DNA of 64,000 bases. Origin: Onchocerca volvulus. Its lineage: Eukaryota > Nematoda > Chromadorea > Rhabditida > Onchocercidae. Shown piece after piece: positions 18,320 to 55,500 of this stretch. The position numbers and the translations under genes were made by a program. Within the stretch, counting starts at the first letter, position 1; every line of letters begins with the position of its first letter. The stretch covers positions 24,742,317-24,806,316 of the forward strand of contig HG738137.1 of the NCBI GenBank assembly GCA_000499405.2. The letters are read 5' to 3'. The notes under the pieces were generated by a model. It was given only the letters and a program-made list of their open reading frames with translations, did no database searches and was not told the DNA's origin.

Positions 18320-18565
18320 TTTCAATATTTTTCATGTCATTTCACGTAAACGTACGTAAACGCTACGTATTTTTACGTGGTTTTTACATTTGCTCTAACT
18401 TAAGAAATAAATTGTGGTAATGCTACGTATATGCTTATATTATCTGTTAGCAATTTTATTGTAATATTTTTCTTATCGTTTTACGTAAACTTTACGTACA
18501 TTTACGTGGTTTTTTCACTTACCCTAACATAAGAAATAGATTGTCATGTGTGATATATACGCTTA
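18320..18565. repeat. Diverged tandem duplication rich in ACGT motifs
   Basis: Copy 1 (18320-18437) and copy 2 (18459-18565) share, in order, a TTT..AATATTTTTC word, CGTAAAC repeats, TTTACGTGGTTTTT, a CCTAAC/TCTAAC word, AAGAAATA and a final TACG..TATATGCTTA-like end. ACGT occurs about eight times in the block. It lies 380-630 bp upstream of the first TPD52 start codon. Confidence 0.6.
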
Positions 18566-18948
18566 CAAATGTATATTAAATGATGAATTATGTATTTTTT
18601 CGAAACTGTAATGTCAGATGTCATAGTTCACAATCTTTCGTAAATTATAAGTTATGATTTTTTCATATATTATCGTGCAGGGTATGAATTTTTGATGTGT
18701 TATTGATAAATGGTATATATAGATGTTTTGCAATATACCTTCATACGTCATATAGTGAAATCATTCTAAGTGCATATCATTTGCTCGGTTTCATCTAGAA
18801 ATGTAAGCATTTTATTTGCATTTTATTATAGCGTATCGACGAAATAATGTTTTCAGACTTAAACTTTTAAAATTGATTTTCTTTTAGATTGGTGCTTAGA
18901 GGCGTTTGATCTGATTAAATTCACGATTACAAAGTTTAAAACAAACAA

Positions 18949-21900
18949 ATGGCAACAGCTGGATTAGAAGGTATTTAATATTCAGTATTCTTTTCACTCC
19001 AAAGTTTCACATAAAGCGCTAAAATTTTCTTACTGAACCATTTTATTGATCCAGTTATTTCTAATTCTTGGTTTTATATGGTGAAGAATGATGGAGTTTA
19101 AGATATTCGCATGCTTCATATAATTCTTCAGTAGTCAATGAAATATATTCTAAATTAATGGAAAATGAGTTAAAATAAAGAGCAAATAAGCATCAATATT
19201 GGTAGATAATTGAAATTCAACAAACTATTCAATTTATGATTTCTTGGAAATGGAGCAAAATATGTCATTCTTAATGTTTTAAGAAATGAGCTATTTTTTA
19301 ATGAGCATTGAAACTGTTATGTTGGACAATATATTTATGGAAGTACACGAGAAAAATTAATTATTAATTAAAGCGTTTGTACAGCATTAATTAACTTGTG
19401 AAAAGATTAGATCGACTAATAAATTCTATCGTAATCCTTGACTCTTTTTCTGTCTCTCATCAATATTGAGAGATTTAAGTTAATTGTGACTGTTTGCTAA
19501 TGGCACACTATAATGTTATAAAGATTGGACCAAAAATAAGTATTGGCTTGCGAAAAGTAGTTTGTAATACCACTCGTTAAAACGATAAATTTGTCTCATT
19601 TCATATAATATTAAATTTAAAAATCGATACTAAAATGTAAAAAAAAAGTAATTGATGAATGGAAAGGAGTGAATAATTGACAAAATTTAATGAAAAATGT
19701 GTTAGAATATTGGCAGAATATACTTTTTTTCCTTCATTTTATATTATGGATATACATATATAACAAATTACATTTCTCATTTCACATAAAATTAAATTTA
19801 AAAATCAATATTAAATTGTAAAAGTGAATGATGGATGAAAAAAAACAAATAATTGATAAAATTTAATGGAAATTGTTAAAATATTAATAGAATGTGTTTT
19901 TTTTTCTTCATTTTATGTTGTGGATATATACATATATGACAAATTTATCTTGTTTATTTGGTTTTCCTTTTTCATTGCATTAAGAATGATTATTAATTAT
20001 AGATTATTGCATATTACGCTATTCTTTATACTACAATATTGCTAAATTATAGGTGTTGATATGTTTTTCATCTACAACTGATATCATTATATATCATTTT
20101 GTGTGAGAAGATATATTGATTCATTAGTTTGAACAGAGTTTTTCGTTATTTAATGATTTACTTGATTTGATTAGCTGTTTTTTTTCCTCTTTCTTTTTTT
20201 TTTGCTGTTCATGGAACTTTTTTTTAAATTTATTTTCACAATTTTTCCTCATTTTCTTTATTCATCGTTTTTGTGCAAATTTTTTCGTCAATTTCACTTC
20301 TCTTTTCGTCTTCTCTTTTATCATGTTCTTCTAATTTCCCATACTATTTTTTCTTTTCTGAATTTCTCATTTCTTGGTCGAAAATAGTTTTAGTTGCGGG
20401 ATTACGAAAAATAACTTTGTATATAAAGCATGACAAATATTTAATAGAAATTCGATAAGTCTATCATCAAACATTGTTTGTTGCTTTGACATAATCATCT
20501 TAGATAAAGAAGATCAGTAATATTAGCTGTCAGATTATTTTTTCTACTATGATTATAATAGAAATTCTTAATAATTAATGTATTTACAGTGATTAAATTC
20601 GGCAAAGTTAATTCTGAAAATAATGAGTTGATTAGTTTTTCAGGATAATTTCTTATTTCCATTGGGTTGTTTTATTACTAAAGCACTAGTCTTTGTGAAA
20701 TATTATTTCGCTTAGGTTATTTGTTGATAATCTTAATTAGCTAATAGTTAATAATATTGTTCTTTCTGATTTAACGATTATTGAGATTATTTTCCGACAC
20801 TGTACTAATTATTTCTGCGATGAAATATTTGCAATGAATAATGTTTGATTTTCATACCATTTATTTTTACTGAAAATTGGAGATGTTAGATTGATGATGA
20901 TGATGGAATTTTTAGATATTTTTTTAGTAAAATAATATTTAGATGAAGATTGAAGAGATGAAAGGTGAAAGGTGAAAGGTGAAAGATAAGAACAGGTCGA
21001 ATGAGAAATCATTTCTTATGAAAACATAAATTCCATTCATATCACTAATTGTATCATTCCAATTTTCAATTATTTTGTTTTGTAGCTGTGTATGTGTGCA
21101 TGAGAGATCCAGGAGGAGGAAGCGTGGGCGGGATTGAGGAAGGTACGTGGGCGAGGATGAAGGAAGAGGATGAGGAAAAAGTGGAGGAGGGAGTTCGCAA
21201 TATATAACATTTCATTTAAATTAATCCAGGTTTTTAAATATATTTAAACATGATTTGATATGATATGAAATGATATACATATGTTATATGAAATTTGTGT
21301 AGGTGTTTTGCAATTTTGGCATTTGTATGAAGTAAACATACACATGCACACACACATGCAGGGCACCTAAATTTGTCGTTCGTACCATCTTTCCTTCTAA
21401 TCAATGATCAGTCCTTCTCTCTCTCTATATTTCTCATTTTTGGAAAATAAATTTCAATTTTTGGCTTAATTGATATGTTAATGATTATTTCTAAATAGGA
21501 CATTTTTAATAAATTAAAAATTTTTGGGGAGAAAACAAAATATGAAATTATAAGGTTTGTTTACGAGAAAAAGGAAAAGAATCTATTGATTGATTTTGAG
21601 ATAACTGAATACATTGTCTCTTTACTGCATAAATTTTGATTTGATTTTCTGATAATGATGATGAAGTGATAATTGTTAAGATAATATTTTCATGGAACAA
21701 ATATTTTTGAGAGAAATTTTGTTTAGGAAAAATCTAAAAATTTATAAGAAATCATATTGATGTTTCAGAAATTTTGAAGCAGGCATTTTATCACATTATT
21801 ACTTATTGATCAGCGAAAATTGGAACCATCCAGAAAGCTTAGTTTGGTTAATTAATGCATTCAAATGAGTATGATTTAGTTGACGCAAATACTAGTCCTC

Positions 21901-24900
21901 TTTTTTTCTTGAAATTTCGATAATTTCGATCAATTCTATGTTTAAAATTGTCAAAACTTGGCTAGAGGAAACGAATGATTGTTTAGTCGGAAATAATCAT
22001 TGAGTTTCATACAGAAAATTGCACTATTGATTATTAGTCATATCACTGTATGTGTGTGTGTCTTTTTTTTCTCTCACAAATATATTAGTTACTATTTTTT
22101 GATGTTTCTTTTTCTTTTTAATCTAACCAATGGACGGATGAGTAATGCTATGAATTTGCATATTGATTAAATGTCCATAATGTGTGAAAATTTAATAATA
22201 AAGACATACTGATATTGTGGTAGCAGGCGTTAAGGTGTTTTTTTGTGGTTTTCGTGTTGTTTTTTCTAATTAATATACTACGATTATGCATGTTAGTTTT
22301 ACTGATATTATTTATGGATAGCTGCTGTTAACGGAGGAATTCTTGATTGTTATTCTTTGAATAGTTAAATTCTGGTTTCAAGATACGATATTGGAACGAA
22401 ATTTCTGTAATTAAACAGTCTTAATTACTATACGTTTAAATGACCGTTCAATTAAAGGATAAGAGGATTTAATGAGGCAATTATGTAATATATTAATAGA
22501 TTTTAATGAGTTTAAAGACCTGTTATGAACGAATAAGAATAATCAGGATTTGAAAAAATTTTATTTAGCAATTGAAATTTTTTTTTTTTGCCTGGTTCTT
22601 TTCCGATCGTGAAGAAAAATTTTGCAATTAAAAATAATATTTATCGAAATTTATTAGAGAAAGATGTGAATACAATGATTGATGATCATCTTTGATCGTA
22701 ATATATTTCTTCGTCTGGCCATTTCAAATTTTTGTTTTTTTTTTTTGTGGATTTAGTTGGGATAGAGAAATCGTGATGAATGAAAATTGATAATGTTGTG
22801 TGGAATGGAATGCTATCTATTCAATTAGTTTGCGATTCTTTGAAATGCTAGTTTCTTTTTTTTTTTTTTTTTTTTTTTTGTATGTCCGACAATGTTTGTT
22901 TTCTTTGCTACTGTGAAGTTTCTATGAGGGATATGTACATAGCTGCTGTTTTTTATGAATTTCAAGTTCGAAAATGTAAGTATTAGAATGGAATAGAAAG
23001 AGAATATTTATTCCATTTATCTACCGGAAATTGATAATCTCAGATCAATGCCATTTTTAATCGTTTTCTCGACAAAAACTTTTTTTCTGAATCATTTTTA
23101 TCGCCAATTGTATAAATTTGCTCATTTTTTTCAAAATATATTCAGTTTCGGAACAGTTGTTCGTTTGCTAAGTGCACAGGTAATGATACCTCCCAAGAGG
23201 CCACCACCTCCTCAGGAGTTATCCAGAGTCCGAAAATCTAAAGCAAATACAGTAAACAGTCAAGAATTGTCATCTTTGGGAAGAAAAAAGGATGCCCAGA
23301 TGCAAGATGCTATGGATAAATTTGCCGATGAATTGAACAAATCATCGGATGACGAGGAGAATGTTATCGAAGGTCGGTGGTCTAAATTAACTTCTCATAA
23401 GTGGTTAGACTTATTCTTCAATCTATCTATTGCTTCATGCAGTTCAGATTTTAGATTTTTCCAAATTCAACTTTAGGTGCATTTATTGCATTCTTAGTTT
23501 TATGAAATAATTGTATAATAAATTAGCCTTTTGTTTTTTTTTTTTTTTTTGGAATTTATATTATTGTTGTTGTTATTGACCATTTGAAATTTATTGTTGG
23601 TGATTATTTGAACTTATTCAGAAGATGGAGTAGTAGAAGGAATTGCAACTTGTCCAAAGAATGTTGTTTTTTCCTTCGTTTTTTAAGTTATCTCTTAATT
23701 AAAAATAACGTTATTCATTCAGTTGTTCATTACTTATCTCATCGTTTTTTTTATTATTCTTTGTTAACGATTTATACTTGTTTTTATCTTTCTAAATGAT
23801 TTGAAGAGTCAAAAAAAGATGGAAGAAAAAATATATTAAATTTTTTAGCATTGTCTTGAAATATTTGTAGTTAATTTTTGTGTAATAAAATTGATTTCTT
23901 TTTTTTTTATCTGGAGACCAATTTGAAATCCTGCATCAATTAGTGTGTTCCTTGTAGCACTCTTCTCGACGTCGTTGTTGATCAGGATCTGATCTGTCTC
24001 ATCAAGTATTCTAAATATCCTACCTGAATATCTGTTCATTATTTTTTAATTTAATATCATTGACTATCGCAAAATAATATTTGATATTGAAAATGATGTA
24101 ATATACTTGTTAAATAATTATATCTTGAATATTTTGAACCTGACTTGAAATTCTTGTCTTATTTAATCCAGAATGAAGTGATGGAGAAATTAGAAAGCAC
24201 ATTTCAGCTGAATATTCAGTATGTCGGTTATTTTAATGATTTTTTTTTCTTTTTTTTTTTAAATAAGCTTGTTTCATATAATAGAAATGTAATTTTTCAG
24301 CTGGTGATGAACATTTCATTAATGGTACTTCAGTTGAACTTAGCGAAGTTGAAAAAGAGTTGATCAGAGAAGAACTGAAAAAAGTCTGTTCCTTTTTAAG
24401 GAGGGAATTTTATTTGATTTTCAAATTATTTGGCTTTGATATTGAAATTTGTTTCACGATTTCAGTTCGTCACTGTCATTTAAATCAGTAATTTTTTGAC
24501 TGTACAATCCAGATCAATTAATTTATTAAAACTTTTCAAGGATACATAAAAGTCCGTGATAGGTTAAGGCGTAATATATCTGCTAACGAAAACTGATTAT
24601 TAGTGTCTAGTATTAATTAACTTTGATATTGAAATTTTATTCATTATCTTCCAAAAAATTTATGAAATGTCGGATAGTTTTAATCTTCTCTCAACTTTGT
24701 AATCCATCCAATATTTTTTAGAAGATTCAGTTTGACTATCGAAATTTTAATTATTTTGTCCAGATGTTCATGAGGTTTAATATTTTTCAGACTGAAGAAG
24801 AAATCAATACATTACGTCAAGTGCTGATTGCACGTCAGAAGCATGCGAGTGATTTGAAACGAAAATTGGGCATTTCACCGTTTACTGAATTTACTGCTGA

Positions 24901-26542
24901 TATCAATCAGTCATTGCAACATGTCAAAGAATCACAGGCGTAGGTTTTGCTTGAAGGAAATGAATTCTAAATTTTTAAGTGTAGAGAAAATCTTATCTGA
25001 TGCTTATAATCACTATCTTTATATTAAGTATTTTACATTTCGCCTTTTTAGTAATTATCAAACTGTAGAATTTTTGGAATATCTTGATATCGCTGTCTTG
25101 AGTAATTCTTTGGGATTCGAAAAAGGATCGTTGATGAACAGTTATTTTGCGAATCATCTTTGTTCAACATTGTTTAAAACTTTCAAATTTTTGCAGTTAT
25201 TTAAAAAAAGATTTACGTCAAGTTTATTTAAAAGATTTGCTGTAGTCTCATGTAGTTTGGTCATTTTCGAGTTTTTCAGATATCAGAAGACATCGGAAGT
25301 GGTCGCAGGTACAGCGGATACTGTAAAAAGCAAGTGGAACGATATGCGTAATTCATCACTGTTCAAATCATTCGAATCTAAATTAGGATCAGCATACACG
25401 AATGTAAGACATTCCTCTCATATATATATATATATATATGCTTTCTATGATTAAGATCTTTTCAGTGTAATTTTTTGATACAGGTCCAAGAATATGCTAT
25501 GTATTATTACAGTTTTATAAAAATCACAATCTTTCTATTACATTTTTCTATTGTATTAAAATTACAGTATAACAGTCTTTCTTAAACTTTGTTAAGGATG
25601 TTATTATTCAAGATATACAGTGTTGGGAAACATGTCTGTTAATTAATTTCTTTTAGATTTTTAAACCTGAGATACATTCCATATATTTCAATAAATAACT
25701 GAAGATTTATACATTGTTGATAATATTTACTTGGTTTTTTATTTAATTTCAAATTAGGATTTAAAAATTTCTTGGCATTGGTTCAATATATAATTGGATT
25801 CCTTCCATCTCTAAATGCAAAAACAATCAGATTTTTATGTCTCATTTTCTCTAAATTAAACTATGGTTTATTCGGAGCATTTTGCTATAGAATATTTCAA
25901 GATTCCGGCAGTGATGGAAATAGAATAAAAAGATGAAAAGATTTATGGAAACTATTGATTTTATGTCAGTTTTTTGCTTTTACTGCTTGATTTTCGTTTT
26001 GTTTTAGCCTTAGAATTTTCTTTTTTTTTTTTCATGTCATAGAAAAAAAAAAAAAAAAACGAAGACATTAATTTCCAAATTTTATATCAAATTTGATCAA
26101 GAGTGAGAAAAAAGGGTGAGGAAATTTATATCATAAGACTAATTTAGTTAGATTTTATTTTTTTGGTCGTTATTATTTATTATTATTATTGACTGTTTTG
26201 TTGAGTATTCAAATCAGCTTGCAAAAAAAAAAAAGCGTTGTGTGATATTACCGATATCATAATTATGATATGAAGTAGGACAATTTTTTAATGGTAGATA
26301 TAATGCTATTTATTATATTCTTCAGATGATAGTTAAAACTGTTATTTGATCATAAATTTGATTAATTGTACTTGTTTTTTTACAAAGTTTAAAACTAAAG
26401 TGTTCGGCCTATTTTATATTTTTAGGCCAAAATGGCAGCATCCACAAGCATTGACCAAATTTCGGGCATGGCTAAATCATCATCCGGAACATCTAGTCAA
26501 GCTGATCCTACGTCACCATCCAATGAAAAAATGCAACTGTAA
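18949..26542 (+). CDS. tpd52: Tumour protein D52 (TPD52) family protein, alternatively spliced
   Basis: Shared exons: 24301-24383, 24791-24939, 25280-25403 and 26426-26542, with first exon 18949-18970 (MATAGLE). Phases agree (1, 0, 2, 0), giving 164 residues; the alternative first exon at 23183-23372 gives 220. The family core is clear: VELSEVEKELIREELKK, then TEEEINTLRQVLIARQKH, DLKRKLGISPF, AYQKTSEVVAG, and NSSLFKSFESKLGSAY. The first two segments form the coiled coil typical of D52 proteins, which homo- and hetero-dimerise and are linked to vesicle traffic. The donor after 24383 is the weak GTCTGT. The protein ends SNEKMQL, with AATAAA at 26677. It is transcribed away from cul-4. The family call is firm; the isoform structure is inferred from phase. 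Confidence 0.9.
19588..19945. repeat. Tandem duplication of about 175-180 bp in the first TPD52 intron
   Basis: Copy 1 starts near 19588 and copy 2 near 19763. Shared words in the same order are TCATTTCA.ATAA, ATTAAATTTAAAAATC, GATGAATGGA or GATGGATGAA, AAAATTTAATG, and CTTCATTTTAT followed by GTGGATATA or ATGGATATA and CATATAT. Diverged, non-coding. Confidence 0.55.
21086..21142 (+). other. Candidate in-frame cassette exon of the TPD52-family gene
   Basis: It is preceded by TTTTGTAG and followed by GTACGTGG. The 57 nt (19 codons) enter and leave in phase 1, so the exon can be added between MATAGLE and the exon at 24301 without changing frame. It would insert A-VYVCMRDPGGGSVGGIEE, a Gly-rich segment. 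The purine-rich sequence continues past the donor to about 21190. Confidence 0.45.
23146..23372 (+). other. Alternative first coding exon of the TPD52-family gene
   Basis: ATG at 23183 opens MIPPKRPPPPQELSRVRK and 63 codons ending in an acidic stretch (SSDDEENVIE), then G in phase 1 before GTCGGT at 23373. Phase 1 is exactly what the common exon at 24301 needs. An acceptor TTCAG at 23141-23145, or CACAG at 23179, could receive a spliced leader, so this is likely a second transcript start. The open frame continues up to an ATG at 23048, but that part is T-rich and lacks family similarity. Confidence 0.65.
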
Positions 26543-31450: not shown

Positions 31451-34400
31451 CTAAAACCTTTCCGGTAATGATGACATCTTTCCGGTATATGCATTCCATC
31501 CGGTTACACTAATAGTTGTTTCTTCGATTGGGATTGTTGTTGTTGGGCTTGATGGTGTAAGTGATAATGTGCTATCACTTTCGTATTTCATCATTTTACA
31601 GCAATGCTTATCAGCATGACAAGTGATAAAAGTTTTTAATGTATATAATGATTTTGCTTGCAAAATTAGCAATATTCCACCATAAATTAAACTTGCGATA
31701 CCTATAATTTATCATATAATGTTATCAATCAATAATGCTATCTTTCAACATTACAGTAATTTTAAGCATTTACCATAACTATTTTCGAATAATTATACTT
31801 TAACTAAAATAGCAAAAAATGCTATACTCATAATTCATTAACAATATCAATCAATAATGCCATCTTTTAACATTGCAGTTATTTTAAGTAACTTACCAAA
31901 ACTATCTTCTAATATTATATTTTAATTGAAATAACAAAAAAAAATTTTATAACAAACTAATATCAGCAAAAGTTTTTTGTATTTTCTTACCGAACAACAA
32001 AATTGTGTGCAAAAATTGCTAGTTTTTTTTATTTCAAATTTTTGAAAATAAAATTTATTTTATACATCCATTAGTTGATATTTTAATATATCTAAGTTAA
32101 ATTTATTTTTTCCCAATTGAAAAGATTTGAAGAAAAAAAAAAATACTAACCAGCAATTAAAGTTGCATAAAAGCAAGTTGAAAAATGAAAATTAAGAATT
32201 GACATTGATCCATCGGATGAGGGAAATCGAATTTGTAAATTTTTAGGTACAAATGTAAAATAGATGAAATCAGCTGATAGAATTATTATACCAACAATAA
32301 AGACTAATTTGGCAAAATTATGTGGTACCAAACATAGCATTAAAATTTGAATAATCCAAAAAGCAAATGCTGTCCTGAAAAATTATTGAAAACAAATTTT
32401 TTCATTCGTCCATTTTTCAAATTATTTATTCTGATATTCATCTATTTTTTCCTTTTGCAATAAAGGATTTTATAAATAATTAAATGCAATATTTTTAGGA
32501 AAGGGAATTTTATGCATTTTTTATAATTTCTATTTTTAGGGAAGAGAATTTTATGTATTTTCATAATTTTTATATTCAGCTAATTTAAATTGGAATCGTC
32601 TTTTTTTAATTGATCAATTCAAAATGGGATCATTTTTATTTACTTGATTAATTTAAAATGAAATCATTTTTCGTCATCTTTATCTCCCTTCTTGCATTTT
32701 CTTGATGTGAAGAAGAAGTCATTAAAAATACAAAAAATAAAATGAAATAAATACTTTTTACAATAACCGAACTTTTTAAATTAATTTTCTAATTAATTTC
32801 AATTAATTTGTATTTTCAATCTAAAGTTGATATACTCAAAGTATGATTAAATTTTCAAAATCAAATATGACAATAAATGCTGGAATGATTAATCATTAAG
32901 TATTCCATTATCAAATTGATTTATAATGAATTAATTTATAATTTTCCCTCTTTTCTTCAAAATAACCAGTTTTGATTTTTTTGTAATTAAAAACAATTAA
33001 GGTTATATTTTAATGAATTTAATCATACCATAACAAATATATGGTATAGTGGCCAGCAAGACGATATTGCCGGCCCCAAATAAATCCAGCTCGATCAACA
33101 CTTAAATATTCGATTATTTTCAGAATTGGATACGGTAAACCTTTTTTCAAACTCTTTTCCAATTCTAATTCCATCGAAAATACTGAAAAATTCAATAGTA
33201 ATACAATATTTATGAATCTTTAATCGTATACTTTATTAATTAGCAATTAGTTTAAATAAAATTTTATGATATTAAAAAATTGCTATATTACGATATATTT
33301 ATCATGATTAATTAAGTTCTTCATTACGATACAGTTATTATGATATTATGACACATTATTATGATTAATTACAATACGCTTATTATGATTAATTACGATA
33401 CATTTATTATGATTAATTAGGATGCACTTATTATGATTAATCAAAATTACAATAAATTAATTAAATAACTTATTGTGATTAATTAAATTCTTCGTAAAGT
33501 ATTTTGTTTGCAAATATATCAATTTATAATTATATGTTCATAAATCTAAATCTATAATTATATTAAAAAAAATTTTTCAAAATAAAAAGATTCATTTGCT
33601 ATTTTTCTAATTTTCACGAATTCCCAAAATTCCGCCTATTATGAGAATTTAATTTGCAAAAATAAATGAGTCTAGCTTTTGTTAATTGAAGGGAAATGAG
33701 AAAACTTGTTCAACTGAAATAGAAACAAAAAAAAGAGACGAAAATTATGCGAAAGTTTTTTTTGATGATTGAATAATTTGAAATTTTGTGTCTGTTTTGG
33801 AAAACTGATTAAAAGTTACTGCTACCATAATCGTACTTATTATAAATGAAAAAGATGAAGATTTTCGAGCTGAATTAATTTGAATTAAATTAATTTCAGT
33901 TCATTAAATTGGATTCATTTGAAGTAGATTGATGTGAATTCATCAAATTTGATTAATATTGAATTGAATTAATTTCGTTGGTTTTAATAAAATAAAATTT
34001 TATTATCAAATCCTTAAAAAAATAAACAAACCATTTAAAAATTCGAAACGTTCATTATATTCTAAGTGATCCAATGAATGATGTGCTTTTTCGGATGTTG
34101 GCACACCTAAAATAAAAAACAAAAATTGGAATTATTAATTAATTGACTAATTTCGAGAATTCATTATTCTCTTAATATTTGGAATGTTTAAATGTAACAA
34201 TTTTAATAAAGTAAGTAATTAATTATTCGTTTTTTGTATAAACAATCTATAAATGCTACTTTCAATTTGAATTTAAAACAATAATAATCAAAATATTATG
34301 AAGTAACTGTGAATTACCATTTTTTATTCTTGAGCAAAATCAATATTTCATTCACAACTTGGTTTATGAATTTTTCATTTCATTTTAAACAGTTCAAATA

Positions 34401-37400
34401 ATGAAATAACTTATGAATTTTTGATTTTATATTTATCTTAATTCATAAATTATTTTATCGTTTAAATTTTTTTTTTTTTTTTAAAATGATTGAAATTTTT
34501 TGGGAAATTTTTAAAAATTAATAATTATACTTGTTAGAGTAACATTAAGATGTTTCAATCCCATACGTACACCAAGGATAGCATCTAATTTATCGGTTGT
34601 AAATGCTCGATAAGTTGAACAAATTTGTATACTTCCTTGATGCCAACTTGGATGATGAATACTTACTAAAATCTGAATAAAATTAAAACTAATCAAATTA
34701 AAAATCTCTTTCTATCTAAAGAAATTATTTTTAAAAAGAAACTATTTTTTTCTTTTAGGTAAACAAAAATTTGAAAAAAAAAGTCTTTCTTTTTTTTAGA
34801 AAAAAAGATTATTCCTTTCGATTCAAAAATTTACGACAAATTTCCGTAGAACAAAAAACTAAGATTTTTTCTTTTCTGCTATGTGCTAATTTTATTTTTA
34901 TCCTTCCTTAGTATTATTAAGTTTAATGCAACAATACAATCGCTTCTACTAAATGAAATGTTAATTTATTCTTGCTTAAAATATTAAGTAAAATTGATTA
35001 GCTATTAAAAGAATAGTGAAATTAATAAAATTATTGTTTGAGAACTGATTTTCTTCAATTTGATTTTTTTTATTTAATTTTGTTTGATTTAATTTTTATT
35101 TAAAAAGTGATTTTATTTAATTTCAAAATTAGCGATGACTTTAAAATTTTTGAAATTAAAAGCACTTTTTTGAAATTTCAACATTTTCTTATTAATAAAA
35201 TTAGCATTATTAGAGTTTTAAAATTCTGACTAAATTTTTCGCATTATTTCATCAAATTGTAAAGTGAATAATAATGCAATTTGGATTAGATTCTTTCTTA
35301 AAATGAAGATCTAAAATTTGTTATTTTAATTTAAATTTTTAATCATATTTTTTTAATTTTAATCACAGTTAAGACCTTTCTTTATTAATCATTTTTCTTT
35401 AATTAATCATTTTCTATCAAGAAATATAATTACTATGTAAGATTGAGAAAAAAAAAATTTTACAATTAATTCTTTTTCATTCATATAAAAAATAACAATT
35501 TTAGGACAAAATAAGTTCGATTCATTTCATTTCTATCCTAATTATATCATTATGATTGAATCAAAATTAAATTCACGACAAAAAAGATCTAAAAATGTTC
35601 AATAAAATTGAAATATAAATATGAAACTTAATAATTCCGACAAATTCATTCACTTTCATTAATTTCTTTTTTCCACACTATTTAATTAATAAATCAAATA
35701 CAGAAATTAATTCTTGATAAATTTTTCATTCTTTTAACTTAATCTCTCGATGTGAATTAATTAAATGTTGTTTCAAAAATGAGATTTAAAAAAAAAAAAA
35801 AAAAAGAAGAAAAAAAAGATGAAATATAGACAACGATTGAAAGAATCATTATGGTAATGGAATAGCGAGGAGGATTAGAAAAAAGTGATTTCTTTGTTTT
35901 AAATGAAATAATTCGTAATCCTTGATGATTGTATGAATTTTATTTCTTTGTTTCAAATCAAATGACTTTGTTTTATGTGGCTTTGTCAAATAGCTTTAAC
36001 CTTTATTCTATGCTGTAGTAAATCATACTAACAAAAGTACTCTCTCATGTGCTAACAGAAAAAAAAAGCTTTCTCATGTCACGCAGACGCTTCCTTGCGA
36101 ACGCAGACGCTTCCTTGCGAATCATTGTAAAGATTGGAATCAACGAGTGCAGTTGGATGTTCTGGCTTGGGTATTGAATTTCTCTTTGTTAGAATTATCT
36201 CCTTCGTTTTATGAAATCATCGTTTAAATTGTTTTAACGATATAAATTGATTTGTAATTGTTACGTGCGTTGTCATGTTATCTAATTTTTTGTAATAAAG
36301 ATTTAATTATCCAAGTTTGAGATACCGCAAAGTTTCGATAACAATATGATAAGAAATAAGAACCCATAATCATTGTCACGATTAAGAAGATCGGTGACAT
36401 AGATATATTTTAGTTCCATTATAATTTTGTCTTGATGAAGCCTAATTGAAAATTTTGATTTATTACAAAAATATTTGGAATTTATCATCGTGCATCTTTA
36501 TGCTCTTATAATTTAATAGTCGATTCCATTGCAATTTTGTTTTAATTAAATATAATTGAATCTTAATTATGCAACTTCATTCATCTTACTTTAAGCTGAT
36601 TGTATAAGTAATTAATTCTAAATTTCGAATTATCTTTTTTTACTCAAAAACTAAAAATTGAATGATTTTGATTGATTGGAAAAATATTTCAAATTTATCT
36701 TTATGCGTCTTTACGCTCTTATAATTCCCTAAATCGATTGGAAACAAGATTTCTATGGATTGAAAATATGAATAGAGACAAAATGTTTATCAAATTTGAA
36801 AATCTCATTATTTCTAAATGGTTATAAAATTTTCGCTGAAACTATTTCTGATATTTCATTCGTTTTGAATGGTTGAAATAATGGAAAGATATATTAAAAT
36901 AAAATGAATTTGAAAGGAATGAAATTAATTTTAGTAACAATACACAATCATTTCATAAATTTTCTTTTTTAAGTTTTTTGTAATTTCTAAATTAAAATTT
37001 TTAAATAATTTCATTCATCTAAAAATTCGTATTTCATTTTTTTTTTCTTAATCAAATATGAATATTTAAAAAAACAAGTTTTTCTCATAATTATAGTAAA
37101 AGGATTCATTTTGCATAAATTTCTTAACAATAAGAAAAAATTAAATTCGAATTCGTTAAACGAAATTAAAACAATGATCAATCACTGTGTAATTTAGAGA
37201 TTATAATCTTGTAATTAATCTAATTTATTTGTTTAATTTCGTAGTTATTTGGTTTTTTTTTTTTTTTATTGCTATATACTGTAATATATTTCATCTACTA
37301 TCTGCCAAATAATGAATATTTGAAGAAAAAAAAAAAAACAAGCGAATTTCTCCTTATAATTATAGTAAAATGATTAGTTTATAAAAATTTATCCAAGTAA

Positions 37401-37653
37401 AGAAATAAATTGGAATTCGAAACTTACTTAAAATAATTGCACCAACCGTAATGCTAATTACGAATGCGATCGTTGACGCTAATCGATAATGTCGTACACC
37501 GGGAAGAATAATTAAAAAGGCTAGAAATGGTGTAATAAATATTGATGATAGAGCGAAAATTTGTAAATCGAATACCACAGGTGTTCTATTATCACCAAAA
37601 AATGTTGGAGCACCATTTTCTCGAAATGCATCAAACCAACCTATCCATTGCAT
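31451..37653 (-). CDS. doxa-1: Dual oxidase maturation factor (DUOXA / DOXA-1)
   Basis: Six exons: 37428-37653, 34531-34665, 34032-34106, 33029-33182, 32151-32374, 31451-31701; phases 1, 1, 1, 2, 1 agree; 1065 nt, 354 residues, close to vertebrate DUOXA. It begins MQWIGWFDAFRENGAP. Exon 1 contains a membrane segment ending FLIILPGVRHYR, matching the ILPGIR motif after DUOXA TM1. Exon 2 carries the extracellular loop (CSTYRAF; GLKHLNVTLT with an N-glycosylation site). Exon 3 gives LEYNERFEF, and exon 4 YRLAGHYTIYLLW, the RLAGHY motif. Exon 5 holds further membrane segments. The last exon has a cytosolic tail with CCKMMKYES and Thr/Ser-rich sequence. DUOXA proteins take dual oxidase through the ER; in C. 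elegans DOXA-1 with BLI-3 supports tyrosine cross-linking of cuticle. The exon-2 acceptor was set at TTTTAG next to 34665 because an upstream CAG breaks the frame. Confidence 0.93.
33326..33442. repeat. 24-bp tandem repeat, about five units, in a doxa-1 intron
   Basis: Units share TTATTATGATTAATT preceded by an ACGATACA-type word. Clean 24-bp units start at 33371, 33395 and 33419; two rougher units precede them. It lies between exons 3 and 4 of doxa-1. Confidence 0.75.
36081..36120. repeat. Exact 20-bp tandem duplication
   Basis: ACGCAGACGCTTCCTTGCGA occurs twice, head to tail, with no mismatch, in a patch far richer in G+C than the rest of doxa-1 intron 1. No known element recognised. Confidence 0.95.
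36300..36321 (+). other. SL1 spliced-leader-like sequence
   Basis: The 22 bases match the conserved nematode SL1 leader at 20 positions, differing only at position 2 (A for G) and position 11 (T for C), and ending CCAAGTTTGAG. The next bases are ATACCG instead of the GTAA donor found in SL RNA genes. It is on the + strand, antisense within intron 1 of doxa-1. Likely a decayed SL RNA gene or the 5' end of an inserted copy of a trans-spliced mRNA; a functional SL RNA is unlikely without the donor. Confidence 0.6.
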
Positions 37654-37699
37654 TTTTGCAAAAAATCGATTTTTCGTTTGATTTCAATGCTGAAAATGA
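37654..37699 (-). promoter_or_regulatory. Probable trans-splice acceptor of doxa-1
   Basis: On the minus strand TTTTCATTTTCAG ends at 37690. It is followed by 36 bases without another ATG and then the doxa-1 start. A strong acceptor just before a first coding exon is the usual mark of spliced-leader addition in nematodes; an ordinary 5'UTR intron is the alternative. Confidence 0.55.
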
Positions 37700-42080: not shown

Positions 42081-43049
42081 ATACACTCATTACAAATAAG
42101 GGGTCTAATAAAGCCCAGTACAACCTAGTGCTAAACAAATCGATATTGGGTCAATATAATTTGCATATTAGATTTAAGTAATCATTAATTTAATGAAATG
42201 TAGCAATACGATAGTGAAAGATAAAATTATTAAATTTTATTGAAGTATTGAATTTCGATAAAATATTAATTGAAAATTCATTTCACTATTCTCTACAAGT
42301 AATCATTGAATAATCATTTCCAAATATTTTTAATACTTGTTTATCTTAAAGTGCAAAATTTCTATTTGAGCAATTCATTTTAATCATTTTTTATGATCTC
42401 TATTTGTTCCAAAACTTTAATTAAAACAAAAAATCATTTCCCTTCTTTTTCTTCAAAATGAAATTATACGTCGTAATAGTAAGAAGAAAAGAGTAAATAT
42501 AAAATTATTTTTAGTATAATGACGTAGCAAATAAATAATTAACCTAAAATTATAATTGATTCATTTCATTTGTTTTTCATTTTTACTTTATTTTTTTCTT
42601 TCTGGTTAAAGATCATGAGATAATTAATTAGTTGTATTTGCTATTCGGAATGCAAATATTGAGAACATAAACATGCATAAAACAATGAATTATTATTATA
42701 AACGATAAAAGATTACTTTTTTTGTTTTTTATTTTTTCATTTTTATCAAACAAAAAAAAAAAGAAAAGAAAAGAAAATATGATAAGTAAATGAATACAAA
42801 AAATTGAGTAATAAATGATTAAATAATTAAATCAATGAATAAGGTAGATAATTTGGATAAATGATTTGATAAGTGGATAGCTGATTTGAATTGATAATTT
42901 GGATAGTTAATGATCAATTGACCAGGTAATTTAGATAGGTTATTAGATAGTAAGATGGATAATTTAGATATATGATTAGATGGTTAGATAATTGACTCAA
43001 GTAAAGGATTTGACAAAATGATAAAGTTAATAGTTGATTGATTTGGGTA

Positions 43050-43197
43050 GATGATTTGTGTAGATAATTTAAGTAGATAATTTAGGTAATTGATTTGATA
43101 TTTAATAAATTGGGCAAATCACAGATGATTTGTGCAGGTAATTTAAATAGATAATTTAGGTAATTGATTCGATATTTGGTAAATTGGGCAAATGAAG
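43050..43197. repeat. Tandem duplication, period 74 bp, within a GATAATTT-rich tract
   Basis: Copies start at 43050 and 43124 with GATGATTTGTG. They share AGATAATTTAGGTAATTGAT and AAATTGGGCAAAT. The surrounding 42840-43220 is a looser array of GATAATTT, GATGATTTG and GATTTGATA words, suggesting an old short-period repeat. Confidence 0.7.
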
Positions 43198-46100: not shown

Positions 46101-47261
46101 TTTCAAAAATTTTGAACAAGAAAATAACAATTTTTGGAAGTGTAAAATAAAAAAATGTGTTTGAACAAGAAATTAAAATTTTTTATTAAGCCATAAATTT
46201 CTGCAGTTAAATCTTTCGTCTTCGAAAAAAAGAAAAAGGAAAATGATAAAACTTTGAAAGATAAAAATTTTCGCAATAATTTTTCGATTGCTCAAAAATA
46301 ATTTGCTTACTTTATTATTTAAATAGTTTGAGCAAAAATATGTTCAATTATTCTTTGGCATCTAGAATGATTCTAAAAGTTATTTTAGATTATTTTAAAT
46401 ATCTAAATAAGTCTAAAAATTGTTTTTGGTTACTTTTTTCTTTCCTTTCCAAAAATTCTTGAATTAAATTAATTAAAAGGGCGGAATGAGTTTTATGACA
46501 AGTGTTTACCATTTTTTGATTCGAATTTATGAAAAAAGAACCTGTTCGTCTTTATGTAATATTATTAACAAGTTTATGGCACTCTTACTTTCTTACAAAT
46601 TTTCAGTTTTATTTATGTCTTAAAAATTGGAAAAATTGTAAAACAAAAATTTTTCCTTCCAAAAACAAATAACTTAAAGAAAGAAATAGAATGGAAAAAA
46701 AGAAAGAGGGAAAAATGATGGTATATAATATATACAAAAAAGTTATAAATGAAATTTGAAATGAACTCTAAAACTTTAAATATTGAAGTAATGCTAAAAT
46801 TTTTCTATAATTTCAATTGGAAAAATTACATAGATGATAATATTTCCGGATTCCGGATTTGACATGATATTATTCTGGCGCTACAAATCATCATTATATT
46901 ATGTTTATTTTATTTAATTAATTAGTTATATTTAAGCAAATATATTCATATGCTTTGTCAATTTTATCAAATTCTATCGTTTAATTCCTTCATTAATTTC
47001 TTTTAATCCTACTAATTAAAATTATCTATGCTTCGTAAATCTGATCAATTATCATATGAAAATTACATGAAACAAAGCAAATAATGGAAATTCTTATTTG
47101 CTAATTAATTAATCATTCTGTTTGTCGTATCAAATTTAAAAATATAATAATTAATAATAATATATAAAAAAAGAAATATATTATCACTTTAAGCAAATAA
47201 ATTAATATATATCTTTCACTTATTTGTATATTTTCCGTTGCAAATGAATATAAAATATAAT

Positions 47262-47700
47262 TAACGGTGTTAATCACGTGGCGCAAGGTCGCAAAATACA
47301 ACTTTATAAGCGTTGATTACGTGATATAAGGCCGTAAAAGCGATTTCATAAACGTTGATCATGCGGCATGAGGCCGTAAAAAACTGCATTAATCACGTGA
47401 CATAAGGCCGTGGGATATGGTTTTGTACGTGTTGATCAGGTGGTATAGGGCCATAAAATACGACTTTATGCGTTTAATCACGTGGCGTAAGATTAAAATC
47501 GTGGATTATGACTTTACGTACATCAATCACGTGGATTGAGGCCGTAAAATACCGCACTAATCACATGGCATAAGGCTGTAAAACACGACTTTGTACACGT
47601 TAATGACCTGGTACAAGGCCATTAAAATATGACTTTATACGCGTTAACCACGTAGCGTAAGGCTTAGACACAAAATATGACTTTGCATGTAGTAGCCATG
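47262..47700. repeat. Degenerate tandem array with CACGTG-type cores
   Basis: About ten or eleven units of roughly 32-50 bp each follow the pattern GTTAATCACGTGGCATAAGG, then CCGTAAAATA, often CGACTTTATACGC. Perfect CACGTG sites lie at 47275, 47394, 47479 and 47528; other units carry one-base variants (ACGTGA, CACATG, CACGTA, CAGGTG). The block is much richer in G+C than its surroundings and has no reading frame. No known satellite recognised. Confidence 0.75.
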
Positions 47701-47789
47701 CTGAAGAAAGCCTAAATATAGGTAGATATAAATACTAATTACACGTATTGAATATAATGAATAAGGCGGAGAATAAAATATACAGTGTG

Positions 47790-47835
47790 ATTAACACGTG
47801 CAAGCCGTATTTTATTACGGCCTTCACGTGTTAAT
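47790..47835. repeat. Hairpin made of two inverted array units
   Basis: The arms ATTAACACGTG (47790-47800) and CACGTGTTAAT (47825-47835) enclose GCCGTA (47804) and TACGGC (47816) around the loop TTTTAT. In all 18 of 20 arm positions pair. The words are those of the neighbouring array (TAA, CACGTG, GGCCGTA), here arranged head to head. Confidence 0.8.
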
Positions 47836-48257
47836 TACGTCTTACATAAAGCGTTACCAATTTATTTGTTGATAACGCCCTCTGATGTTTCATCCAATCA
47901 TCAGCTATTAATATCTCAGCAAAAGTTTTCGTACTTGACAAATGGCAACAATTTTGAAAGAAAATAAGAAAAAAAAAAAAAAAAAAAAAACGGAAATTCT
48001 TTCAAAGAATCACTTTTACTGTTGAAAAATTTTTAAAATAAAGAAAAATTAAACTTTTCCAGTGAGAAAAAAAAAGAATTCCTAAAATGAAAATTAAAAA
48101 AGAACAATTAAACAACCATTTAATTACTTAGAAAATAACAAAAAAAAGTAACAAAAAATATGTTTTTGTAAAGTCTGTTGTTGAAAACCGCTTTTGTTTC
48201 ATATGTTGTGAATGAAAAAAAAAAGGAATGAAAGAGAGGAAAGAAGAAAGAAAGAAG

Positions 48258-52599: not shown

Positions 52600-55500
52600 T
52601 CATTTCCCAGGTGTTAAATTGTGTGGAATTTCCCGGAAACAATTCTGATATATGTTAACAAATGAAGCAATGTCAAATTTTTGAATTGCTTCAAAAATTT
52701 TTTCTTGATTTGTTGTTTTTGAGAAGCGCATTTCAACTGCATGGCTACAACTATCCGTCATGTCCATTTTTTGATCTTTTTGCAGATCGATCGGTTTCTT
52801 TGTAGCTATTAAATGTTGAAATATGCCAACTAACATATGTCCCCAAATTCGTGTCGAGCAAAATAGAGCTGCACCAGCATCATCCTGAAATTAGATAAAT
52901 AAGTGACAATTTTATAGTAATTGAGAGGGAAATATTCGGAACGGATAATTTATAACATTTATATTTTGTTAAAACAATAAAATTATTTGGAAAATCTATA
53001 TAAATAAAATGTAAATGCTCGTTGTAGCTTTTGACACAATGTTGCAAGTTCTTCACCGATTGCTTTGAAATTCTGATACAACGTTGCATTCAAATAGGCG
53101 TGTGCTTCTATATAGATTTATCTACTTTATTTACTTGTCCGGTAGGATAAACATGATTCCCGCCAAAACGCTGTAAGGATAAACACGTTTCCCGCCAAAA
53201 CGCTGTGAGGATAAACATGTTTACCGCCAGAACACTCCGACTAACAGATAAACTGAGCTCAACCTGTCATTAATTCAGCTCAACCTGTCATTGATTCACT
53301 GCTAGATAATAGTCAACAAATAATCCATATGAATGAAAATGTAAATGCTCGTTGTGGCTTTGGCAATACCGGTTGACATATTTTGTTTATCTGTTTGCTT
53401 TGAAATTTTGAAACAACGTTACATTCGAATAGGCGCGTGTTTTATATAAATATGTTTTATATGAATATCTACTTTTAATCTGTTTTCCTGTGACAGGTAA
53501 AATTAAGTGAACGGAATTTTTATTTATATGGACTAGCTGGATGGCCAAGCTCCGCCTGGCCGGGTACAATTAGTTATAAAGTATAGTTAATTAAAGGAAG
53601 AATATTGGAAATGGATAATTTATAAAAACATTTGTATTTTATATCTGCTAAAATAATAAAAATCATTTAGAAAATTCCAAGATTTAGCTGATTAAGAAGA
53701 GAATATTGGAAATGAATTACTTACAAACACTTATGTTTTGTACCTAAAATAATAAAATCATTTGAAAAATTATAAAACATAGTAATTAAAGAGGAATATT
53801 GGTAATAATAATTTATAAATCTTTATATTTTTTGTATCTACTAAAATAATAAAATTATTTGAAAAATTATACAATATATTTAACTAAGAGGAAAATATTG
53901 GAAATGGATAATTATAAAAAATGTTTATAAATTTTTTTTTTCGTATCTGCTAAATAAAAAAATCCTCGAAAAATTACAAATAGTCAAAAAATCAAATCAA
54001 ACAAATTATTCGCTTATTTCATGAGTGAATTAGTAAAAGAAGACGGAAATTGAAATAAAGAATATGTTCGTAGATGTTAAATTTTCTTTCATTATTTAAT
54101 TTTTTTTCAATATTTGATTAAAAATTGAGCGAACATTTTGTGTTCTGGATAACCTTCGTTTGTACTTGAATGAATTTTAATAAAAAGAAGGGAAAAAGGA
54201 TGGGGATGAAAAAAAAAAAAATTATCTTCCCAAAGAAGATTAGGAGATTGATCGGATTTAAAATATTGAGATAAGTCATGAGAAAAAAGCAAAGACTTTG
54301 TTGTGAAAAAGATTTTTTAGTGGCAAAAATTGGAAAATGAAATTTTTCTTTGAGAAATTTAGGAATTTCTGTAACGAATTCGCTTTATAAGTGCAAAAAA
54401 AAGGAAATAGAAAATTTACATTATGTTTTACATTATGTAAATGAAAAGATTGCAAAGATTGATGAGAATTCGAAAGAATAATGCAAAGATTGAGGAGAAT
54501 AAATGTATATACGGATAATTGCGGAGGAGAAAAAATAATAAAAATATTTTAGAATTAAAATTATAATTTACGAGATGAGAAAAAAAAGAAAAGAAAAAAA
54601 ATGAACAAACCCAACATGCAGTTTCATTGCCAACAATCGGTGACCAGAAATAATTAGATTTATCTTTTACCGGATTGATCGATTGAATATTAATTAGCTG
54701 AATTTGATCTTGCTTAATAAATTCGGTTGCTAAAATATATCAAAATATGAATATATATATATATATATATATAAATTATTGAATTCAATTCAAATTACTA
54801 AAATTATGAGTTATAAAGTTTTGAAAAAAAATATGTAAATTAAATGAATTATCATAGATCACTGAAATATCAAGAAATTTATTCATATTTCTTTTGTACT
54901 GTATCTTTTTTTATCACCCTTAATTAATTATCACTGACCATTATCTGTGGTAGCAAATCCTACAATCCAACATTTTTTCTTTTTTAACTTTAAGATATCA
55001 ATATTTACGATTGATGATCGTAGTAATGATGGTCGAACATTTAACTGAGCAACTCGTTTTGGTGCCGGTATTGGTGGACAGAGCTGAAAATGTAAATTTA
55101 TCTCAAAAATATAAATTGGCTAAAAAATTACAACTGAAAATCTAGACATCAGAATATCTTGAATATACAGTAATTTAATCAAAAATTTAAGCAAAAAATG
55201 CTTACTGTAGACCAATGTTCTTTTTTATAGATCTTTGAAAAAAGAAATTACGATAGCAATTGTTGAAAATACTGTATATAATTTATTCTCATACTAGGCA
55301 CTTTTTTAAATCTTATATTGAAAGAAATACACAACTTTTAAGTAATATTTTTATTAGTAATCTAACATTAAAAAAAAATTTGTTAAATCATTAAATTAAT
55401 CAATTTTCCATCTTAAACAACTTGAAGAAGTTTCGGATCATTTTTCATTTTTCACATTTAATTTTTCAAAAGAAACAAAAAAAGGAAGGGAAAGAAGACA

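What the first reader, a model, noticed from the sequence alone, without database searches (positions are those of the whole stretch)
47262..47835. CACGTG-cored degenerate array ending in a head-to-head hairpin
About ten units with the order TTAATCACGTGG / CATAAGGCCGTAAAATA / ACTTTATACGC stand in a 15-kb gene desert. Six perfect CACGTG palindromes occur between 47275 and 47830, in sequence where G+C-rich hexamers are rare. Unit spacing alternates between about 32 and 42-50 bp. The array is followed by a 46-bp hairpin built from the same words in opposite orientation. It could be a young satellite, a remnant of a palindromic mobile element, or a cluster of bHLH (E-box/G-box) binding sites. I do not know this repeat.
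Basis: partly seen in the sequence, partly recalled or inferred. Interest (0 to 1): 0.75.

Follow-up and report, generated by a model that had tools for sequence, protein, structure and literature searches.

The report
Old one-locus minisatellite with inverted unit
A short stretch of what looks like a filarial worm chromosome holds ten worn copies of a 43-letter repeat plus one flipped copy that folds into a hairpin; searches found it at no other place in that genome, and it looks like an ordinary, old, decaying local repeat rather than a gene switch or jumping gene.

Summary
The array is real. Ten head-to-tail units of about 43 bp lie at 47270-47691 (+), and one more unit lies in reverse orientation at about 47787-47838; it is the 'hairpin'. 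Six of the window's seven CACGTG sites fall in this block because CACGTG is part of the unit. It is intact in 4 of 10 direct units and no better conserved than other parts of the unit. Spacing does not alternate: units 3-6 and 7-10 are a duplicated 168-bp block (75% identity, K2P 0.32). The inverted copy is a much better palindrome than the unit consensus. Genome searches found array and flanks only here, apart from one stray pattern match, while a control query found a dispersed family. A 200-kb sample held one comparable locus-private, transition-rich array. Best explanation: an old, single-locus, decaying minisatellite made by slippage or unequal exchange, with one unit inverted and its arms matched by hairpin template switching (inferred). 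A young satellite is contradicted; a mobile element and a bHLH cluster are not supported. The one unusual trait is 41% G+C against 20-24% in the flanks. A genome-wide count of CACGTG pairs did not complete, and no other filarial genome could be searched.

The parts
47270..47691 (+). Ten direct units of about 43 bp; majority consensus TTAATCACGTGGCATAAGGCCGTAAAATACGACTTTATACGCG
   Evidence: Model matches; unit boundaries; alignment A1; lenient TRF
47355..47522 (+). First copy of a four-unit (168 bp) higher-order block, units 3-6 (34, 43, 42, 49 bp)
   Evidence: Global alignment to 47523-47691: 124 of 165 identical, 7 gap positions, K2P 0.32
47523..47691 (+). Second copy of the block (169 bp), units 7-10 (34, 43, 44, 48 bp), sharing the short unit and an insertion at about the same place
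47692..47786 (.). Spacer of 95 bp without a clear unit
   Evidence: 47694-47745: 193 of 300 (+) and 164 of 300 (-) shuffles match the consensus as well; 47735-47795, which overlaps the hairpin's edge: 36 of 300 (+) and 7 of 300 (-); no model match; no direct repeats
47787..47838 (-). One unit in reverse orientation, forming a hairpin with two 23-nt arms (87% complementary) and a 6-nt loop
   Evidence: Inverted repeat I2; model match 47791-47830 (-); fold -23.4 kcal/mol, z -7.3 for 47790-47846; alignment

Best explanation
This is an old, locus-private, degenerate minisatellite. A short G+C-richer, imperfectly palindromic sequence was multiplied in tandem at this one site, probably by replication slippage or unequal exchange (inferred). 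A four-unit block was then duplicated (shown by alignment and shared indel states), and the copies drifted apart by point changes, 74 of 89 of them transitions relative to the consensus (shown). One unit beside the array lies in reverse orientation (shown) and is a much better palindrome than the consensus (shown). The likely cause is hairpin-mediated template switching, which can invert a spacer and make two arms match (inferred). The CACGTG words are part of the repeated unit, so they cluster because the unit is repeated. No present function is shown, and none is needed to explain it.
For: Repeat structure. Single locus: the 574-bp query found only itself and its own hairpin. A two-unit consensus query found four places, all in the array, at E<=10. 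A 24-base pattern with up to 3 mismatches found 3 matches, all in the array. A second pattern found 6, of which 5 are in the array and 1 is at C5:8225069, with no model match around it. The tested flanks matched only themselves (the right flank also its own hairpin). Positive control: a 221-bp query from 53380-53600 gave 49 matches including itself, 40 of 896 candidates scored, the others at 70-92% identity, so divergent dispersed families are detectable. Same kind elsewhere: in 200 kb of sampled genome, L042:8756-9197 is a 26-bp unit x17 array, also found only at its own locus and also transition-rich, 63:16. Age: K2P 0.32 between block copies. No excess conservation of CACGTG, no covariation above shuffles for the unit hairpin (94 of 500 shuffles reach the observed percentage paired), no Rfam match in the window at gathering scores. 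Template switching between inverted repeats homogenises arms and inverts spacers in yeast (PMC8604942, abstract read).
Against: G+C is 41% (47262-47700) against 20.5% and 24.2% in the 1-kb flanks. Against the majority consensus, G+C-to-A+T changes are only 33 of 74 transitions, where 65% would be expected at 25% equilibrium G+C (p=0.0004; 59% and p=0.013 if the equilibrium is 30%). Passive decay alone does not predict this; GC-biased conversion between copies, selection, or a wrongly polarised consensus could. The spectrum is more transition-rich than 2.3:1 (p=0.005; for the L042 array p=0.07). Consensus palindromy is only weakly significant: fold p 0.010-0.034 by register and strand against single-base shuffles, while the local self-complement alignment score, which does not count G-T pairs, is not significant (p=0.39). 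Only 1 comparable array turned up in 200 kb, so the class rate is very poorly known. The genome search warns that no match does not prove rarity. No other filarial genome could be searched.
Confidence: 0.78

Rival explanations
1. A homotypic cluster of bHLH (E-box/G-box) sites acting as an enhancer, for example for the DuoxA-like gene whose 5'-most recognised exon lies about 9.6 kb away on the minus strand.
For: Six CACGTG in 556 bp out of seven in 64 kb; rough clustering probability 7e-8 if sites were placed independently, an assumption that tandem repetition breaks. DuoxA matches at 32146-32382 and 37360-37683 on the minus strand. G+C kept high.
Against: CACGTG intact in 4 of 10 direct units; core mean identity 0.87 against 0.79 elsewhere, a value that 10 of 42 six-column windows reach (the core and windows overlapping it among them, but also AAGGCC). 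Clustering follows from tandem repetition. No binding or expression data available. Genome-wide pair count did not complete.
Confidence: 0.07
2. Remnant of a non-autonomous mobile element with an internal array and a terminal palindrome, such as a Helentron-associated element (HINE), or a foldback element.
For: HINEs can carry a short tandem array and a palindrome at the 3' end (PMC7492417, passages read); here an array is followed by a hairpin.
Against: Neither the array, the hairpin, 370 bp on the left nor 269 bp on the right matched another place in the genome; no plasmid match and one 27-bp match at E 0.6 among phages. The hairpin is one unit of the array, not a separate terminal module.
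Confidence: 0.07
3. A transcribed hairpin locus (small RNA or structural RNA).
For: Strong hairpin at 47790-47846 (z -7.3); the block folds better than 20 of 20 shuffles on each strand; by self-complement score 3 of the 10 direct units (3, 7, 9) have p below 0.05.
Against: No Rfam match in the window at gathering scores; no covariation beyond shuffles; on the + strand only unit 4 of the ten direct units folds clearly better than shuffles (z -2.3, the others -1.1 to +0.8); stem short for a microRNA precursor (recalled knowledge).
Confidence: 0.04
4. A DNA fragment of bacterial or viral origin that became tandemly repeated.
For: Higher G+C than its surroundings.
Against: A degenerate 24-base unit pattern had 2 matches in the prokaryote genome collection, in a Woesearchaeota and a Heliophilum record, close to my own rough estimate of chance (about 0.5, from no call), and 0 in viral contigs; no plasmid match.
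Confidence: 0.02

Closest known systems
Degenerate minisatellites (short tandem arrays, unit about 10-100 bp)
   Same: Head-to-tail units of 43 bp, 10 copies, higher-order block duplication, found at one locus, apparently non-coding.
   Different: Much higher G+C than flanks and one neighbouring unit inverted into a strong hairpin.
Quasipalindrome template-switch mutations (PMC8604942: abstract read; PMC7202029, PMC8794818 and PMC3820800: seen in the listing only)
   Same: Inverted orientation of a quasi-palindromic unit and better-matched arms.
   Different: No ancestral or related sequence here to show the event itself.
HINE / Helentron elements with central repeats (PMC7492417, passages read)
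   Same: Tandem array with a palindrome at one end.
   Different: No dispersed copies found; the palindrome is itself a unit; terminal modules not seen.

Membership tests
Minisatellite | Tandem head-to-tail units of about 10-100 bp | tested here: met
   Ten units, period 43
Minisatellite | Copy-number change among individuals | not testable with these tools
   One assembly only
Abundant satellite DNA | Long arrays or many loci in the genome | tested here: not met
   One locus by DNA and pattern search, apart from one stray pattern match
Young satellite | Homogeneous, little-diverged copies | tested here: not met
   Mean pairwise unit identity 67%; block K2P 0.32
HINE / other non-autonomous transposon | Dispersed copies of the flanking modules | tested here: not met
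   Tested flanks matched one locus; control query dispersed
HINE / other non-autonomous transposon | Defined termini and insertion site or target-site duplication | not tested
   With a single copy there is no empty site to compare
bHLH site cluster | CACGTG preserved better than surrounding repeat sequence | tested here: not met
   4 of 10 direct units intact; 10 of 42 six-column windows as conserved
bHLH site cluster | Protein binding or regulatory activity | not testable with these tools
   No ChIP, ATAC or reporter data
Structured RNA | Covariation supporting the hairpin | tested here: not met
   Percentage paired reached by 94 of 500 shuffles, covariation score by 98 of 500; 10 sequences give limited power
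Quasipalindrome template switching | Arm homogenisation or spacer inversion relative to an ancestor | tested here: inconclusive
   The inverted unit is a far better palindrome than the consensus unit, but the ancestor is unknown

The most novel reading that the evidence does not exclude
The array is kept G+C-rich by selection as a regulatory cluster of CACGTG sites near the DuoxA-like gene, or is an example of GC-biased conversion acting on a private palindromic minisatellite while the A+T-rich genome around it drifts.
Probability: 0.1. Interest if true: 0.45.

Novelty: new member of a known kind. Interest (0 to 1): 0.18.

Why it matters
Mostly as a caution: a striking cluster of transcription-factor words can be a by-product of an old tandem repeat. 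If the high G+C proved to be actively maintained, such private arrays would be natural records of conversion bias or selection in a very A+T-rich parasite genome.

Tried and rejected
Considered and rejected: (1) units 11 and 12 between the array and the hairpin; I drew them by eye, but they did not beat shuffles convincingly, so I end the array at 47691. (2) A conserved RNA hairpin per unit: on the + strand only unit 4 of ten folds clearly better than shuffles (units 3, 7 and 9 have self-complement p below 0.05), and covariation does not exceed shuffles; the excess of G-T over A-C pairs (33 against 13) comes partly from two pairs whose commonest form is G-T (13 cells). (3) Transitions as a sign of something special: array 522:121 pairwise, nine other window repeats pooled 145:77, single ones from 5:4 to 24:4; by alignment to a consensus, array 61:9 and L042 63:16. 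The bias is shared by a comparable array, so I do not count it as special, although it is stronger than the pooled control. Brugia malayi SNV ratios are 2.10-2.60 (PMC8575316, passages read). (4) Other core sites in the genome: of five exact TTAATCACGTGG sites listed, two are in the array; I fetched the other three, three of the one-mismatch sites and L013: no model match in 7 of 7. Genome-wide, the 12-base core with up to one mismatch is rarer than its reversed control (107 and 103 against 280 and 256). (5) Literature: five repeat- or genome-related searches, of which I saw capped listings; no title or abstract start shown described this repeat. That is not proof of absence.

Limits: the base rate rests on 20 of 60 planned random 10-kb stretches. 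No other filarial genome was searchable.

Full report
What is there. The block contains ten head-to-tail units at 47270-47691 on the + strand, with lengths 43, 42, 34, 43, 42, 49, 34, 43, 44 and 48 bp and majority consensus TTAATCACGTGGCATAAGGCCGTAAAATACGACTTTATACGCG. A sequence-only model of these ten units finds them again at E 3.5e-13 to 3.1e-6, which is by construction, and finds one further unit that was not in the model: 47791-47830 on the - strand, E 0.0044. The only other matches up to E 10 in the window are two at chance level, E 0.24 and 0.76. The two halves of the array align at score 109, against at most 28 in 500 shuffled pairs. Tandem Repeats Finder with standard settings has no row for the array; with lenient settings it reports period 43, 10 copies, score 291, against at most 103 in 500 shuffled blocks.

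The spacing. It does not alternate. Units 3-6 and units 7-10 are two copies of one block of 168-169 bp: both begin with a 34-bp unit lacking the same stretch and end with a unit carrying an insertion at about the same place. The copies are identical at 124 of 165 aligned positions, with 33 transitions, 8 transversions and 7 gap positions, K2P 0.32. With a nematode mutation rate of a few 1e-9 per site per generation (recalled), this means tens of millions of generations if neutral. The array is old, not young.

The hairpin. The arms 47787-47809 and 47816-47838 are 87% complementary with a 6-nt loop. Nearly the whole hairpin aligns to one unit, better in reverse orientation (36) than in forward orientation (18). 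The consensus unit itself folds as an imperfect palindrome, with p 0.010-0.034 by register and strand against single-base shuffles, while its local self-complement alignment score, which does not count G-T pairs, is not significant, p 0.39. The inverted unit is far more palindromic than any direct unit (self-complement score 52 against 12-32; fold z -7.3). The simplest account is template switching in a hairpin, which homogenises arms and inverts spacers in yeast (PMC8604942, abstract read). This is inference: no ancestor is available. Between the last direct unit and the inverted unit lie 95 bp without a clear unit.

CACGTG. Six of the window's seven sites are here, but the genome sample has 22 in 200 kb, so the window's total is ordinary. 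Within the ten direct units CACGTG is intact in four. The six core columns average 0.87 identity against 0.79 elsewhere, and 10 of 42 six-column windows reach the core's value; these include the core itself and windows overlapping it, but also AAGGCC. The clustering is therefore explained by repetition of the unit. A genome-wide count of CACGTG pairs was asked eight times and never answered.

Where else. The genome is 94.7 Mb in 115 contigs. Contigs of 28.3, 25.5 and 16.6 Mb fit Onchocerca volvulus, whose X scaffold is 25.5 Mb and whose four large scaffolds span 16-31 Mb (PMC5310847, passages read); this identification is inference. The full block, the hairpin, a two-unit consensus, the right flank 47692-47960 and the left flank 46900-47269 match only this locus. 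Pattern searches with up to three mismatches gave 3 of 3 and 5 of 6 matches inside the array; the sixth has no model match around it. The search does find divergent families: 53380-53600 gave 49 matches including itself, with 40 of 896 candidates scored. The tool warns that a missing match does not prove rarity. The plasmid collection gave no match, phages one 27-bp match at E 0.6, viral contigs no pattern match, prokaryote genomes two pattern matches, and Rfam no match in the window at gathering scores.

How usual. In 20 random 10-kb stretches (of 60 planned), one array had at least eight copies of a unit of 25 bp or more: L042:8756-9197, unit 26 bp x17, matching only its own locus, 31% G+C against 24-27% beside it and also rich in transitions, 63:16. 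The window itself has one more such row, weak and A+T-rich, at 42845-43178 (period 33, 9.9 copies, score 77). So at least two strong private degenerate arrays exist in this genome, and the true rate is very poorly known. What remains unusual is the strength of the G+C excess: 41% against 20-24%. Relative to the majority consensus, changes towards A+T are fewer than the local composition predicts (33 of 74, p 0.0004, or 0.013 at 30% G+C). Gene conversion favouring G+C, selection, or an unreliable consensus at this divergence could each cause this.

Context. The array lies between a DuoxA-like gene on the minus strand (Pfam matches at 32146-32382 and 37360-37683) and an unassigned minus-strand ORF at 52600-52890 (no Pfam match). 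Ten of ten ORFs tested in the interval have no Pfam match; not every ORF there was tested.

Verdict. A real but ordinary kind of object: an old, private, decaying minisatellite with one inverted, hairpin-forming unit. Regulatory and mobile-element readings are possible but unsupported.

Noticed in passing
window 53380-53600: Part of a dispersed repeat family: 49 matches genome-wide including itself, with 40 of 896 candidates scored, the others at 70-92% identity.
   Followed up: partly
L042:8756-9197 (G000:C3:1476709-1477150): A second locus-private degenerate array, 26-bp unit x17 with a 176-bp higher-order period, transition-rich.
   Followed up: partly
window 47262-47700: G+C of 41% with flanks of 20-24%, and fewer changes towards A+T than composition predicts; cause not settled.
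   Followed up: partly
window 19594-19945: A 176-bp direct duplication with 24 transitions and 4 transversions between its copies.
   Followed up: no
window 18353-18599: Two copies of a roughly 129-bp repeat with TACGTAAACG-like and TTTACGTGG words.
   Followed up: no
window 32146-37683 (-) and 24858-25454 (+): Exons of a DuoxA-like gene (two of the three ORFs tested between 31.4 and 37.7 kb match Pfam DuoxA) and of a TPD52-family gene.
   Followed up: no
window 53144-53233: A short 32-bp tandem repeat (2.8 copies) with a relatively G+C-rich unit, just left of the dispersed repeat.
   Followed up: no
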